Source of the DNA: Acidobacteriota bacterium
GTDB lineage: Bacteria > Acidobacteriota > Vicinamibacteria > Vicinamibacterales > SCN-69-37
Direction of reading: 5' to 3'
NCBI GenBank assembly: GCA_013203475.1
Contig: JABMNV010000051.1
Location: forward strand, 1 to 35,647
Length of the DNA: 35,647 bases
Part shown: positions 1 through 10,049 of the stretch, piece by piece
Numbering within the stretch: position 1 is the first letter of the stretch
Layout of the letters: each line of letters begins with the position of its first letter
The notes under the pieces: generated by a model
What the model was told of the DNA's origin: nothing
Database searches by the model: none
Seen by the model: the letters and a program-made list of their open reading frames with translations, nothing else
Made by a program: the position numbers and the translations under genes

Positions 1-1284
1 GCGACCGAGGCGCTGATCGCGGGCGCGGGGCGCGGCGATGAGCGGCGGCATTTCCCGGAATCCCGTGATGCGCCGGAAGCCTGTGACGGCCTCGAGGACG
101 CCCGCCGCGACCCAGCGTAGCACCATCTGCCCCCCGCGCCACCGCTTGACGTTGCGCTTCACGTGGCGGGTGCGGCTGATGAGGCTCTCGGCCGCGTTCG
201 TGGTACTGAGCGATCGGCGCAGAGCGTCGGAAAGCCCGAGGCTCAGAATGGTCAGGGTTTCCTCCAAGCCTTCGCGCACACTGGCCGCGGCACTGGGATG
301 ATCGCGCTCGAGCCGCGTGGCCAGGTCGCGCAACCCCCGCGTGGCGGCGGCGCCGTCCGTACTCCGGTAGGCGCGCTGCAGGATCGCTTTCACCCACGGC
401 CGCTGGCGTTCCGGCAGATGGTCGAGGACATTCCGAAGCTTGTTCGCCTTATGCCGACGTCGGCATAAGGCGCACACGGCGCAGAACCGCGCGGTCAGCG
501 GGCCGTGGGTGCCCGCGCCCCAGGTGACGGTGTCCCACGCCTCGGCGGGCGCCGAGTCGGCAATGGCCACGGCGGTCTGTCGGCCGGGCACGTCCGCGAT
601 GGCGAAGGTCGCGCCGCCGCGAATGGCCACGCCATAGGCGAGGCCCAGCCGCTCCAGGCCGGCGCGAAACGCGGCGTTGCTGCCATAGTCGGCATCGACC
701 ACGACGCCCGTGATCGTGAAGCCCGCTTTCTGCACGCTGCGCACCTGCGCCAACGCCATCCGCCACTTCTCGCGAAAGACCAGGGTCGGCGGAATGCCGA
801 CGGTGGCGCGGCGGGCGGGATCGTCCATCCACGCGGCCGGCAGATACAGGTCCCACGCGAGGGGCCACGTGCGCCCGTCGGCGATCAACGCACTCGAGAC
901 GGCGACCTGGCAATTCCCGATCTTGCCCAACGCGCCGCAGTACTGGCGGTGCACCCCGACCGAGTGCGTCCCTTGCTTGGGAAAGCCCGTGTCATCGATC
1001 GCCAGGATCCCCGTGCGCACCGGCACGGTCGTCCGCAACTGCGTCCACACGCGGGTCGCGTCCCACGGCGAATGCGTGATGAAGTGCTGGAGGGCCTGAT
1101 ACTGGCCGGGATCACTGAGCCGGCCATGCATCGCCTCCATCGACTTCCGTTCGCTGTCGTTGAACAGGCCGTCGAGATACCGACGGACCGCCTCGCGTTG
1201 CGGTTGGCGACTGAAACAGGCGCTGAACCTGTCCAGGTAGCGGCCCACGCGGCGAAGCAGGGCGCGTGCGGAGTCCGTGGTCAT
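1..1284 (-). CDS. Chimeric transposase: IS701-like N-terminus fused in frame to IS256-like C-terminus (partial)
   Basis: The reading frame is open from an ATG at 1284 to the window edge (428 codons, no stop). Residues 1 to about 268 read like an IS701-family DDE transposase: an AIDDTGFPKQG motif carrying the first catalytic Asp, GVHRQYCGALGKIGNCQ, a WPLAWDLYLP motif, and VVDADYG carrying the second Asp. From about residue 275 the sequence changes family: LRNVLDHLPERQRPWV, LERDHPSAAAS, REGLEETLT, then KRWRGGQMVLRW and FRRITGFRE, which is the C-terminal half of an IS256/Mutator transposase. The switch falls in a CRRRHK segment encoded by a 28-bp palindrome at 445-472. The IS701 catalytic Glu region is absent; the Glu now comes from the IS256 part. 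Seen: continuous frame, no stop. Inferred: a recombination product of two insertion sequences. Whether it is active is unknown, and an assembly chimera must be excluded. Confidence 0.75.
   Translation of the reverse strand, partial: MTTDSARALLRRVGRYLDRFSACFSRQPQREAVRRYLDGLFNDSERKSMEAMHGRLSDPGQYQALQHFITHSPWDATRVWTQLRTTVPVRTGILAIDDTGFPKQGTHSVGVHRQYCGALGKIGNCQVAVSSALIADGRTWPLAWDLYLPAAWMDDPARRATVGIPPTLVFREKWRMALAQVRSVQKAGFTITGVVVDADYGSNAAFRAGLERLGLAYGVAIRGGATFAIADVPGRQTAVAIADSAPAEAWDTVTWGAGTHGPLTARFCAVCALCRRRHKANKLRNVLDHLPERQRPWVKAILQRAYRSTDGAAATRGLRDLATRLERDHPSAAASVREGLEETLTILSLGLSDALRRSLSTTNAAESLISRTRHVKRNVKRWRGGQMVLRWVAAGVLEAVTGFRRITGFREMPPLIAAPRARDQRLGR
445..472. repeat. 28-bp perfect palindrome at the transposase fusion joint
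   Basis: The arm CGCCTTATGCCGAC is followed directly by its exact reverse complement with no spacer; the symmetry fails at 444/473. It lies exactly where the coding sequence switches from IS701-like to IS256-like. It could be two insertion-sequence ends joined head to head, or paired inverted core sites of a tyrosine recombinase. The sequence does not decide between these. Confidence 0.8.
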
Positions 1285-1373: not shown

Positions 1374-2543
1374 TTAAATGTCCAACAGAATCAACTGGTT
1401 AGCGGAATCGAGACAATTTACCGCGGTGCGATCGGGCTGGAGGGCGCATGAAATGGGCGTTTTCTCGAAGATCGAGACCGACAGGATCTGTAGCCACTGG
1501 TAGAGCGACCCCGGCAGTTGCAGTTCCTTCTTGACGATGGCGATGAGCACGTACGTCGCCACGGCGCACCAGATTTGTGTCTTGACCGCGTTCTCGCTGG
1601 TGCCCAGGAATCGCTGGATGCGCAGGTGCTGCTTGATCCATTTGAAGAACAGCTCGACCTGCCAGCGGCTCTTGTACAGCGCGGCAATCGTCAGGGCGGG
1701 CAGGCGGGTGTTGTTGGTCAGGAAGATCAGGGTCTTGCCGGACTCGGGATCCTTGTACCGGACGCGCCGCAGGTGATCGGGATAGTACCGGGCCGGATAG
1801 AGCCCATTGAGCAGGATGCGTTGATCGCAGATGACGCCGCCCCCACGATCGGTGGGCATCGAGTACACGCGTCGGGCGTCCATTCCGGCCTTGGCGCGGG
1901 TCACGAAGAACGCGCCCGCCTGCTGCAGCGCGTACAGGCGGGCGAAGTCCAGATAGCCGCGATCCATGACGTAGAAGGCCCCGGCCTCGACGGGCAGCAG
2001 ATCCAGGACATTGACTTCGTGGCACTTTCCGTCGCTGATATGGATAAACGCCGGAATCGCACCACGCAAGTCCAACAACGTGTGCAACTTGATGGCGGCC
2101 TTCGTGGTGCGAAACGGCGCCCACTCGAACAGGCTCAGACACAGATCGATGGTGGTGGCATCGAGCGCGTAGACGCTCGCATCGAGATCGAGCACCGACG
2201 GGTCGTGGGCATACAGGGCACGCGCACGTGCGATCAGGCGCTGCACCAGCGCGTGGTAGATTCGCCAGTCGCGCCGATTCAGCGCATCGGCCAGCGTCGA
2301 CCGCGCGGGCGGCGCCGTGAGACCCATGTGAGAGAGTTTCGCGTGATTGGCCGCCAGGCAGACCTCGATATCGCGCAGCGACTCGCGCCACGTCAACTGC
2401 GCGAACGCCAGGACGCGGAACACCTCGGCGCAGCCCAGCGTCCGCACGCCGGCATCGCCCTGATGGCGGGTGATGATGCGGCCGAATATCTTCCAAGGCA
2501 CGAACTCCATCACTTGGGCGAACAGCGTCTGGCCTGCATTCAT
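1374..2543 (-). CDS. IS4-family transposase, intact
   Basis: This is a 389-residue DDE transposase with the N-terminal DUF4372-like domain (about residues 5-75) and a DDE_Tnp_1 catalytic domain. The first catalytic Asp is in YALDATTIDLC, the second in YVMDRGYLDF, and the YREK signature is complete in YKSRWQVELFFKWIK with correct 2-3-6 spacing (Tyr, Arg, Glu, Lys), followed by HLRIQRFLGTS. Length and motifs are those of a full IS4 protein, so this copy may be functional. It faces the same way as the chimeric transposase just downstream, with only 89 bp between. No clear pair of terminal inverted repeats was found by eye; an end-like sequence lies near 2660-2690. Confidence 0.9.
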   Translation of the reverse strand: MNAGQTLFAQVMEFVPWKIFGRIITRHQGDAGVRTLGCAEVFRVLAFAQLTWRESLRDIEVCLAANHAKLSHMGLTAPPARSTLADALNRRDWRIYHALVQRLIARARALYAHDPSVLDLDASVYALDATTIDLCLSLFEWAPFRTTKAAIKLHTLLDLRGAIPAFIHISDGKCHEVNVLDLLPVEAGAFYVMDRGYLDFARLYALQQAGAFFVTRAKAGMDARRVYSMPTDRGGGVICDQRILLNGLYPARYYPDHLRRVRYKDPESGKTLIFLTNNTRLPALTIAALYKSRWQVELFFKWIKQHLRIQRFLGTSENAVKTQIWCAVATYVLIAIVKKELQLPGSLYQWLQILSVSIFEKTPISCALQPDRTAVNCLDSANQLILLDI

Positions 2544-3232: not shown

Positions 3233-3895
3233 TCAGCCGTCGCTAGCCCACGCGAGATCAGCGCCGACGTCCAAAGGCAACGGCGGCTCGCGCGCAGGCC
3301 GCATCACCGGTACAGCGTCCGGTAAACCTAGATGCCGCAGGATGCGCGCCACGACCACCGCGTCACGGATCCGGTCCACCAGCGTCATCCGCCCCCCGCA
3401 CCGCGGACAGGCCAGGACATCGAACCCGAAGCTCCGCTCCATCAGTTCCGCCCAGTCCCAGTTGGGCCGGCGCCCGACCCGCTCGTGTCGACATTCGCCC
3501 GACGTCCCCGATCCGGAACTGTCGTCGGCGCCCTGCGCCGGAACAATCTCACTGCGCCACGCGGCACGCGGTGCCAACACGCCGTGATAGAGCACAAGAT
3601 TGATCCGCGGACGTGGCACCAGCGCCGCCAGGCGCTCGAGCAGTTCCACCGAATCAAACACCAGATGCGTCGTCCCATTCGCCCATCGGCGGCGCAACTC
3701 AAGCACCACCTGCCCCTCGGGACTCATGCGCAGGCGCTCCTGCCCCACCGCCGGGCGCAACGCGTACCGGCACAAGCGCTCCAAACGATCACGCGCACCC
3801 GCCCGCACCGCGATTCTGGCATGCAGATCAAACCCCTGCAGACGCGCGTGCCACTCACGCTGGGCCGTTGACGCAGGCGCCGCGACTGCGACGCC
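3233..3895 (-). pseudogene. IS91-family transposase, C-terminal fragment
   Basis: This is the C-terminal part of a Y2 HUH transposase: GFDLHARIAV, LERLCRYALRP, GQERLRMSPEGQVVLELRRRW, NGTTHLVFDSVELLERL, the INLVLYHGVLAPRAAWR segment, NWDWAELMERSFGFDVLACP with a CPRCGG zinc-binding-like pair, and an ending REPPLPLD. The N-terminal zinc domain and the HUH and Tyr motifs are missing, because the gene is cut on its 5' side at the next IS91-type end (3917). The stop codon is intact at 3233. It cannot be active by itself. Confidence 0.85.
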
Positions 3896-3916
3896 GCACC
3901 GCCTGACCGACAGCCC

Positions 3917-3985
3917 GCTGATAGGCCGTATGAAGGGCCTTTTCCCTGACATAACCCTTCCTGTCAGACATTGGGCACACCACCC
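3917..3985 (-). repeat. IS91-type element end, copy 3
   Basis: GATAGGCCGTATGAAGGG differs from the other two copies mainly in the last bases of the core. The following hairpin, AGGG-CCTTTT-CCCT, has a different sequence but the same position, then TGACATAACC and TGTCAGACATTGGGCA, which parallels TTATCAGACCTTGGGGCA of copy 2. It cuts off the 5' part of the preceding transposase fragment. Confidence 0.6.
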
Positions 3986-4091
3986 AGGCGCGGATCGCGC
4001 GCAAGAAGACACAAGAAAGCCAAGCGCAGAGGAGTCCATCGACTGCGACCGCAACAGGGGCAAGACCGATAGGTCCGCGCCGGGCTTTCTG

Positions 4092-4470
4092 TCAGCCGCC
4101 GCTCACCCACACGGGATCGGCGTCGACATCCAAGGGCAGCGGCGGCTCACGCTCGGGGCGCAACGTCGGCACGACCTGCCCGTCGGGCGTGACCCGCAGG
4201 CGATCCTGCCCCACCGACGCGAACCGATCGTCGCCCCCAGGCCTCACCGACATCCCCGCCCGCAGCCCCAGAGCAGCCATGCCTCGCACGGATGCCGCCG
4301 CCAGTCCCGCCAACGTCGGCATCTCGTCAGCCCACGGATCCGCCACATCAACACCATCACGCCCGTCGGACACACCGTGGCGCGCCAACAGGCGCCCTAT
4401 GCGCCTCGCCAGCGTCACCAGCAGCGGCGTCACGTCCGGCGCGACCGGTGTCCAGGTTCAACCTGCCAGC
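4092..4470 (-). pseudogene. IS91-family transposase, internally deleted fragment
   Basis: The frame reads LARRIGRLLARHGV, DPWADEMPTLAGLAAASV, then jumps from GGDDRF to SVGQDRLRVTPDGQVV and again straight to LRPEREPPLPLDVDADP and a stop. Compared with the fragment at 3233-3895 it has lost the FDLHA-LCRY segment and the roughly 150 residues between GQVV and the C-terminal tail. Both losses keep the frame. The upstream side ends at an in-frame stop near 4460. It is a deletion derivative of the same family, with its own element end at 3917. Confidence 0.75.
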
Positions 4471-8675: not shown

Positions 8676-10040
8676 ATGCTCAAACAGAACGTCACCCGGC
8701 GGAGTGTCTGCGGCCTGATCGCTGCTGTCATCGTCTGTGCCTCAGGGGTCGACGCCCAACAGGCGAGCCACTGGCCGTCGTTTCGCGGTATTCGCGGGGC
8801 TGGTGTTGCTGATGGTGATCCCCTGCCGGCGAACTGGAATGTGCCCCAGGGAACAGGCGTGCTCTGGAAGATGCCGCTTTCCGGCCTGGGACACTCGAGT
8901 CCGGTCGTCTGGGGCACTCGTGTCTGCGTGACGACAGCTAAGTCTGGCAAGGCCGATGCGGGCTTGAGGCTGGGACTGTACGGTGACATCGCGTCGGTGG
9001 CAGACGACACCGTTCACACGTGGTGGCTGACGTGTCTGGACACCGTGTCCGGCAAGGTGCTGTTCGAAACGAAGATGCACGAAGGAAAACCGGCCGTCAA
9101 GCGTCACACCAAGTCGACGCACGCCAATTCGACGTTGGCCACCGATGGGGTCCACCTCGTGGCCATGTTGGGGTCCGAAGGGCTTCACGCGTTCGACATG
9201 AACGGCAAGCCGCTGTGGAAGACCGATCTGGGCGTACTGGACTCGGGCTACTACCTGGCGCCGGCGGCGCAATGGGAGTTCGGAAGCTCGCCAGTCATTC
9301 ATGACGGCAAAGTTGTCGTGCAGGTGGACGTTCAGCAGAACTCGTTTCTGGCCGCGTTTGATGTCACAACCGGCGCGGAACGGTGGCGCACCGCCAGAGC
9401 CGACGTGCCCACGTGGAGCACGCCGACGATTCATGAGGTGGCTGGTCGTACGCAGGTGCTGGTCAACGGATGGCGCCACATGGGGGCCTACGACTTCGAG
9501 ACGGGCCAGGAGATCTGGAACTTAAAGAGCGCCGGCGGTGACATTCCCGTGCCGACTCCGGTCACGGGCCACGGCCTGGTGTATCTCACGAGCGCCCACG
9601 GGCGTGGCGCGCCCGTGTTCGCCGTCCGTGAAACCGCCACCGGTGACGTCACGCTCTCTGGGGACGCCACCAGCAATGAACACATCGCGTGGAGCCATCC
9701 GCGAGACGGCGCGTACATGATGTCGCCGGTCTTGTACCGAGGATTGTTGTACGTCTCGAAGAACAACGGCGTGTTTGCGGTCTTTGATGCGTTGACGGGC
9801 GAGCGCGTCTATCAGCAGCGCCTGGGCGACGGCACAACCGGATTTACAGCGTCGTTAGTCGCCGGAGACGGCAAGGTGTATTTCTCAAGTGAGGACGGCG
9901 ACGTGTTTGTGGTGCAGGCTGGTCGCGACTTCAAGTTGCTCGCCACCAATCCGCTCGGTGACTATGCGATGGCCACACCAGCGATTGCGGGAGGCACGAT
10001 GTTCTTCCGGACTGGTAGTGCCGTGATCGCTGTGCGCTAG
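8676..10040 (+). CDS. Exported PQQ-repeat beta-propeller protein
   Basis: This 454-residue protein begins with a signal peptide (MLKQNVTRRS, then a hydrophobic core ending GVDAQQ). It has the opening common to exported PQQ-like propellers, HWPSFRGIRGAGVADG...LPANWN...GTGVLWKMPLSGLGHSSPVVWG, and then repeated blades: TWWLTCLDTVSGKVLFETK, LHAFDMNGKPLWKTDLG, FGSSPVIHDGKVVVQVD, LAAFDVTTGAERWRT, GAYDFETGQEIWNL and YFSSEDGDVFVV. The PQQ-dehydrogenase catalytic residues were not recognised, so it may be a structural or binding propeller, not an enzyme. An upstream in-frame ATG at 8625 overlaps the divergent gene; the ATG at 8676 leaves 43 bp for both promoters and gives the normal signal peptide. 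Confidence 0.8.
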   Translation: MLKQNVTRRSVCGLIAAVIVCASGVDAQQASHWPSFRGIRGAGVADGDPLPANWNVPQGTGVLWKMPLSGLGHSSPVVWGTRVCVTTAKSGKADAGLRLGLYGDIASVADDTVHTWWLTCLDTVSGKVLFETKMHEGKPAVKRHTKSTHANSTLATDGVHLVAMLGSEGLHAFDMNGKPLWKTDLGVLDSGYYLAPAAQWEFGSSPVIHDGKVVVQVDVQQNSFLAAFDVTTGAERWRTARADVPTWSTPTIHEVAGRTQVLVNGWRHMGAYDFETGQEIWNLKSAGGDIPVPTPVTGHGLVYLTSAHGRGAPVFAVRETATGDVTLSGDATSNEHIAWSHPRDGAYMMSPVLYRGLLYVSKNNGVFAVFDALTGERVYQQRLGDGTTGFTASLVAGDGKVYFSSEDGDVFVVQAGRDFKLLATNPLGDYAMATPAIAGGTMFFRTGSAVIAVR

Positions 10041-10049
10041 CGCACAGCG
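10028..10049. terminator. 22-bp perfect hairpin over the stop codon
   Basis: CGCTGTGCGCT is followed without a loop by its exact reverse complement, and the TAG stop of the PQQ-repeat gene sits at the centre. It is followed by CACCTTTTGG, a very short T run. It lies at the 3' end of a gene that converges on the FAD-linked oxidase gene, so a transcription end point is plausible. The lack of a proper U tract makes an intrinsic terminator uncertain. Confidence 0.4.

What the first reader, a model, noticed from the sequence alone, without database searches (positions are those of the whole stretch)
1..1284. In-frame fusion of two unrelated transposases at a 28-bp palindrome
One open frame begins as an IS701-type transposase and ends as an IS256-type transposase. 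The joint is coded by a perfect palindrome and sits at the IS256 C-x-x-H region. The first two catalytic Asp come from one family and the Glu from the other. Such a domain swap between DDE families could be a natural new transposase or a trace of a site-specific joining event.
Basis: partly seen in the sequence, partly recalled or inferred. Interest (0 to 1): 0.7.

Follow-up and report, generated by a model that had tools for sequence, protein, structure and literature searches.

The report
Transposase halves fused at RIT palindrome
Two unrelated jumping-gene enzymes are joined in one reading frame by a short palindrome that is the end tag of a third mobile element (a three-recombinase "RIT" element), so this is most likely a scar left by that element (or an assembly mis-join at its repeat) rather than a new enzyme.

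Summary
On the minus strand, ORF 1284-1 matches an IS701 transposase up to residue 270 and an IS256 transposase from residue 281 on. The gap between is coded by 32 bp: a 20-bp palindrome, TTATGCCGACGTCGGCATAA (449-468), flanked by two near-mirror 6-mers. No other genome searched has the fusion.

The palindrome is not anonymous. In complete plasmids and other contigs it lies at one end of RIT (Recombinase-In-Trio) elements, next to three tyrosine-recombinase genes. RIT-type insertions use a 6-bp overlap, and the same IS256 histidine codon is hit in two other complete plasmids. In the window the RIT body is missing, and each side of the palindrome carries the half-gene that normally lies outside a RIT right end (a "right-right" joint). 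One finished plasmid (Paraburkholderia sabiae) has the same kind of joint between two IS66 transposases. A Pseudofrankia draft has two more.

I therefore read the fusion as a RIT-mediated rearrangement scar. It remains possible that the assembler flipped at the 28-bp palindrome, because the joint is 445 bp from a contig end and the bin holds no RIT. A working domain-swap transposase is unlikely: the IS256 CxxH motif is destroyed and the replacement residues are just the translated palindrome.

The parts
475..1284 (-). 5' part of an IS701-family transposase gene (codons 1-270)
   Evidence: DDE_5 / NF033540 match; ungapped protein match to intact IS701 relative L048 over residues 1-270, 75% identity
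1353..1376 (-). likely IS701 terminal inverted repeat upstream of the gene (TTAACACGACTCTGCCAGGTTGAG)
   Evidence: inferred from alignment with the 21-bp terminal inverted repeats of the intact IS701 copy in L048
469..474 (.). 6-bp overlap (coupling) sequence on the IS701 side, GGCGCA on the + strand
   Evidence: position equivalent to the 6-bp overlaps at RIT ends; differs from CGCGTG in the IS701 relative
449..468 (.). RIT right-end palindrome TTATGCCGA-CG-TCGGCATAA
   Evidence: same palindrome next to recombinase trios in complete plasmids and contigs
445..472 (.). 28-bp perfect palindrome (20-bp core plus 4 bp of each overlap)
443..448 (.). 6-bp overlap (coupling) sequence on the IS256 side, GGCGAA read on the - strand
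   Evidence: mirror of 469-474 at 5 of 6 positions; replaces AATTCA of the IS256 relative and turns the His codon CAC into AAC
1..442 (-). 3' part of an IS256-family (mutator) transposase gene, cut by the contig end
   Evidence: Transposase_mut / NF033543 match; 78% identical to the intact IS256 relative in G100

Best explanation
The fusion is a recombination scar of a RIT (Recombinase-In-Trio) element. SHOWN: RIT elements carry three tyrosine recombinases. Their arrangement is target-left, 6-bp overlap, RIT left end ... RIT right end, 6-bp overlap, 20-bp palindrome, 6-bp overlap, target-right. The two overlaps around the palindrome are usually mirror images. Insertions recur in transposase genes, including the IS256 histidine codon. 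In the window the palindrome and both overlaps are present, but the RIT body is absent, and both neighbours are 'target-right' halves: the 3' part of IS256 and, read antisense, the 5' part of IS701. INFERRED: a RIT once sat in one of the two transposase genes with its palindrome. The recombinases then exchanged strands at the internal core (RIT right end, mirrored overlap, palindrome) with the other gene. Because the overlap there is the reverse complement of the target overlap, pairing by overlap identity aligns the new target backwards. The palindrome thus becomes joined to a second target-right half, while the RIT leaves with the rest. The reading frame through the palindrome is open by chance (two of three frames are open). 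The chimeric protein is a by-product and probably inactive.
For: 1) The palindrome (23 specified bases) occurs in 5 genome loci of a 257-Gb collection, where my rough base-count reckoning expects about 0.01; its NN-centre form occurs in 18 viral contigs. 2) Of 43 distinct palindrome sites, 29 have RIT-end half-sites on exactly one side and none on both. All 12 such complete-plasmid loci with gene annotation show three adjacent tyrosine recombinases, one with a split third gene. The trio proteins match Phage_integrase. 3) Overlap mirroring averages 4.6 of 6 against 2.9 in 2000 re-pairings (maximum 3.5); the window has 5 of 6. 4) The same IS256 His-codon site is hit in two other complete plasmids: L040 GGTGCA|CTTCCTCAGGAACG and L085 CGTCCA|CTTCATGAGGAACG. 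5) A right-right joint without RIT exists in a finished plasmid: two IS66 transposase 3' parts head to head at the palindrome in CP125297. 6) Both transposase matches break at the outer edge of overlap plus palindrome. 7) Published RIT descriptions report about 3.5 kb, a 28-29 bp inverted repeat with an overlapping palindrome, and insertion in a transposase gene (PMC3414803).
Against: No RIT gene or RIT end was found in this bin. The complementary halves (IS701 3' part, and a close match to this IS256's 5' part) are also absent. The joint lies 445 bp from a contig end. Right-right joints are rarer in finished records (1 of 22 sites) than in draft genomes (3 of 7), which is what assembly errors would produce. 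RIT transposition has not been reproduced in the laboratory (PMC10214605). The other right-right joints pair two genes of one family, whereas this one pairs two families.
Confidence: 0.58

Rival explanations
1. Assembly mis-join. In the real DNA two RIT copies, each with its own palindrome, sit in an IS701 and an IS256 gene. The self-complementary 28-bp stretch let the assembler cross from one outer flank to the other, skipping both RIT bodies.
For: A palindrome predicts exactly a right-right product. The perfect core is 28 bp, so a flip needs only word sizes below that length. The joint is 445 bp from a contig end; L007's joint is about 170 bp from its contig end. No RIT in the bin. Three of 7 draft-genome sites but 1 of 22 finished sites are right-right.
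Against: The finished P. sabiae plasmid has the same kind of joint. The 6-mers on the two sides differ (GGCGAA and GGCGCA), so a word size above 28 could not have made it, and assemblers usually finish with longer words (general knowledge; the assembler used here is unknown).
Confidence: 0.35
2. A functional domain-swap transposase: D and D from IS701, E from IS256, selected as a new enzyme.
For: One open frame with no stop; all three catalytic motif positions nominally present.
Against: Found once only. The linker is translated palindrome; the last part of the IS701 catalytic domain and the IS256 CxxH are lost. The only recognisable end is an IS701 end at 1353-1376; the far end lies beyond the contig. 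In-frame reading through the palindrome occurs at other sites too.
Confidence: 0.02
3. Ordinary illegitimate or replication-slip recombination at a palindrome that arose in the transposase genes themselves, unrelated to RIT.
For: Palindromes promote template switching (general knowledge).
Against: Intact IS256 and IS701 relatives have no such palindrome. The 20-bp core is identical to RIT-end palindromes in other phyla.
Confidence: 0.03
4. A single known transposase family with this architecture.
For: None found.
Against: NCBIfam and Pfam split it at the joint. The nearest relatives of each half are complete IS701 or complete IS256 proteins.
Confidence: 0.01

Closest known systems
RIT (Recombinase-In-Trio) elements, ritA-ritB-ritC (Van Houdt 2012, PMC3414803)
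   Same: The window joint carries the same terminal palindrome (TTATGCCGA-NN-TCGGCATAA) and 6-bp overlaps that flank RIT elements, at a target (IS256 His codon) also marked by this palindrome elsewhere.
   Different: The window has no recombinase trio and no RIT left or right end repeats. Only the palindrome remains, with target-right halves on both sides.
Right-right palindrome joint in Paraburkholderia sabiae plasmid NZ_CP125297.1 (466044-466063)
   Same: 20-bp RIT palindrome, fully mirrored 6-mers, no RIT body, outer transposase halves on both sides.
   Different: Joins two IS66 transposases head to head; the window joins IS701 to IS256 in one reading direction.
IS701-family insertion sequence (intact copy in L048)
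   Same: Transposase residues 1-270 and the upstream terminal repeat.
   Different: The last third of the transposase, and the right end, are missing in the window.
IS256 / mutator-family insertion sequence (intact copy in L049)
   Same: The C-terminal 150 or so residues of the transposase, with the presumed catalytic Glu.
   Different: N-terminal two thirds and the C-x-x-H motif are missing.
Tn916- and Tn554-type tyrosine-recombinase transposons
   Same: Works alike in using a 6-bp overlap or footprint between element end and target (Tn554 6-bp footprint: PMC10214605).
   Different: I know of no report that they carry an end palindrome flanked by mirrored overlaps (from memory; not tested).

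Membership tests
RIT element | Three adjacent, overlapping tyrosine-recombinase genes | tested here: not met
   None beside the joint, and no close RitB in the assembly. The window holds a RIT scar, not a RIT element.
RIT element | Terminal palindrome TTATGCCGA-NN-TCGGCATAA with 6-bp overlaps | tested here: met
RIT element | Repeated TTATGCCGA half-sites 17 bp apart at each end | tested here: not met
   Absent around 449-468; only chance-level matches in the assembly
RIT element | Recombinases actually cut at this core | not testable with these tools
   Needs biochemistry; RIT movement not shown in the literature read (PMC10214605)
IS701 transposase | Full-length match to the family model above its cut-off | tested here: not met
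   265.7 bits passes 150, but model positions 277-363, where the last catalytic acidic residue should lie, are missing
IS256 transposase | Full-length match above the family cut-off, with C-x-x-H | tested here: not met
   70.3 bits against a cut-off of 150; CxxH lost
IS701-IS256 hybrid transposase family | Same fused protein in independent genomes | tested here: not met
   No fused homologue in plasmids, own family, 396 phylum genomes or viral contigs

The most novel reading that the evidence does not exclude
RIT recombinases produce a distinct rearrangement in vivo: because the overlap on the RIT side of the end palindrome is the mirror image of the target overlap, strand exchange there aligns a second target backwards and fuses two outer target halves head to head around a bare 20-bp palindrome. 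RIT elements would thus be a source of inverted joints and chimeric genes, as in this window and in the P. sabiae plasmid.
Probability: 0.45. Interest if true: 0.6.

Novelty: new variant of a known kind. Interest (0 to 1): 0.42.

Why it matters
RIT elements are widespread, but their movement has not been shown and their target specificity and empty sites were listed as untested (PMC10214605). The comparison here yields testable anatomy: half-site TTATGCCGA, a 6-bp overlap, one palindromic end, recurrent targets inside other mobile elements' genes (IS256 and IS66 histidine codons, serine recombinases, ISAs1), and right-right joints as a product. It also warns that predicted proteins containing the peptide LCR-x-RHK may be RIT-end fusions, not real domain architectures.

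Tried and rejected
Searching the exact palindrome in 396 genomes of the phylum gave only the window, which at first suggested a unique feature; the wider collection overturned that. Exact palindrome in viral contigs: none; the NN-centre form gave 18. Literature search for the half-site string returned nothing relevant among the papers listed. I considered the palindrome as a circle junction of one insertion sequence; rejected because the IS701 end is different and the intact IS256 relative shows no such sequence. I considered precise RIT excision (same gene on both sides); rejected because the two sides are different families. A reciprocal chimera was sought and not found. No structure prediction was run: without homologues of the fusion a model would be untrustworthy. 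Nielsen 2017 was not held, and Ricker 2013 was seen only as a citation; neither was read, so some of the RIT anatomy described here may already be published there.

Full report
WHAT IS THERE. The window is the whole of contig C5 of a 264-contig, 3.58-Mb assembly. Pfam and NCBIfam split it into IS701 (residues about 15-279) and IS256 (about 282-396). An intact IS701 relative in another genome of the order (L048, 397 aa) aligns without gaps to residues 1-270. An intact IS256 relative (L049, 424 aa) aligns cleanly from KLRNV, residue 281, to the contig end. Between them the chimera reads CALCRRRHKAN, coded by 32 bp: TGCGCC + TTATGCCGACGTCGGCATAA + GGCGAA. The 28-bp perfect palindrome (445-472) is the longest in the window; shuffled windows gave at most 22.

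THE PALINDROME IS A RIT END. In the own genome it is unique, and it is absent from the other 395 sampled genomes of the phylum. A scan of 84,980 species found it in 5 loci, in Pseudofrankia, Streptomyces, Solirubrobacterales and Rhodobacteraceae. Its NN-centre form is in 18 viral contigs, and 77 plasmid records have a match of some length to the 30-bp query. In intact cases it sits at one end of a 3.3-kb unit with three consecutive tyrosine-recombinase genes and TTATGCCGA half-sites repeated 17 bp apart at both ends. That is the RIT element (PMC3414803: about 3.5 kb, 28-29 bp inverted repeat with an overlapping palindrome, insertion in a transposase gene). Twelve of 12 annotated complete-plasmid loci of this class show the trio beside the palindrome.

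ANATOMY OF A RIT INSERTION. Reading L015 and L017: target-left, 6-bp overlap, TTATGCCGA (left end) ... TCGGCATAA (right end), 6-bp overlap, palindrome, 6-bp overlap, target-right. The target 6-mer is directly repeated at the two outer ends (GGCCCA in L015, GCGTCA in L017). The 6-mers on either side of the palindrome tend to be mirror images: mean 4.6 of 6 over 43 sites against 2.9 for re-paired sites, and 19 sites fully mirrored. The sites are partly related, so this is not a strict probability. Targets recur: IS256 at the CxxH histidine (L040, L085), IS66 at CWAH (L036 twice, L037, L096), serine recombinases at KGTMSEA (L007, L010, L034, L042), ISAs1 (L008) and others. Gene names not given by Pfam are my reading of the translations.

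THE WINDOW JOINT. In the window the palindrome and both overlaps are in register, but there is no RIT end on either side, no RIT end pattern beyond chance in the assembly, and no close RitB (best 28% identity). The IS256 flank starts at exactly the codon position where L040 and L085 have their target-right flank. The IS701 flank begins CACGGC, again like a target-right flank. So both sides are outer halves. The 6-mers are not those of the relatives (CGCGTG in IS701 L048, AATTCA in IS256 L049); GGCGAA replaces the CA of the histidine codon. They behave like coupling sequences.

IS IT REAL DNA? The P. sabiae plasmid CP125297 (complete, circular) has the same right-right form: two different IS66 transposase 3' parts, AHARRQFYELH... 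and AHARRYVFDVH..., head to head around the palindrome with GGCGCA on both sides. So the class exists in finished DNA. But only 1 of 22 finished sites is right-right, against 3 of 7 in draft genomes (window, L007, L034). A palindrome is just what makes an assembler with short words flip from one flank to the other. I cannot decide this without reads; I give the in-vivo joint about 0.58 and the mis-join about 0.35.

HOW IT WOULD WORK (inferred). Overlap identity sets the direction in tyrosine-recombinase exchange (general knowledge). At the inner core (right end, overlap, palindrome) the overlap is the reverse complement of the target overlap. A second target with the same overlap therefore pairs backwards, giving target-right, palindrome, target-right plus a RIT right end joined to target-left. 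This explains why right-right joints have mirrored 6-mers and why three of the four known cases join two members of one family. The window, with two families and 5 of 6 mirrored bases, fits less neatly.

IS THE PROTEIN AN ENZYME? Probably not. The fusion occurs once in everything searched; the IS256 CxxH is gone; the last part of the IS701 domain is gone; the linker is translated palindrome. Two of three frames through the palindrome are open, and ORFs reading LCRRRHK or LCRARHK through it occur elsewhere (L007, L008, L106). So an open frame is not evidence of selection.

VERDICT. A scar of a known kind of element in a little-described form. What is new, as far as the literature I could read goes, is the recognition of right-right palindrome joints and mirrored overlaps at RIT ends.

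Noticed in passing
L037 4506-7806 (NZ_CP117160.1 9419-12719): An IS21-like istA/istB unit in a complete Sphingobium plasmid is bounded on both sides by the RIT palindrome with fully mirrored GGCGCA overlaps; one outer flank reads like an IS66 transposase half.
   Followed up: partly
L040 around 4504, L085 around 4001, L086 around 4001, L096 around 1501: One side of the palindrome is a recurring end sequence (GCAGAGCGTTTTTAGCTTGGCG or similar). In L040 and L086 IS91-family transposase plus tyrosine-recombinase genes lie on that side, and in the L040 and L085 plasmids a RIT end follows about 2.6 kb further on, as if such an element sat between RIT right end and palindrome.
   Followed up: partly
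L008 534-2108: An ISL3-like transposase ORF appears to interrupt a RIT-like recombinase unit that itself interrupts an ISAs1-like transposase gene in Streptomyces humidus.
   Followed up: no
L010 2329-2386: In Pseudofrankia a RIT end has overlap GGCCTC on its inner side and GACCTC on the target side, matching two different right-right joints (L007, L034) of the same genome: possible exchange of overlaps between copies.
   Followed up: partly
window 1374-2543 (-): Apparently complete IS4-family transposase (DDE_Tnp_1 + DUF4372) directly abutting the IS701 end.
   Followed up: partly
window 3233-4433 (-): Fragment of an IS91-type (Y2_Tnp) transposase, with a second short ORF next to it sharing similar C-terminal sequence.
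   Followed up: partly
window 10028-10049: A second perfect palindrome of 22 bp, CGCTGTGCGCTAGCGCACAGCG; two of 20 shuffles reached this length.
   Followed up: no
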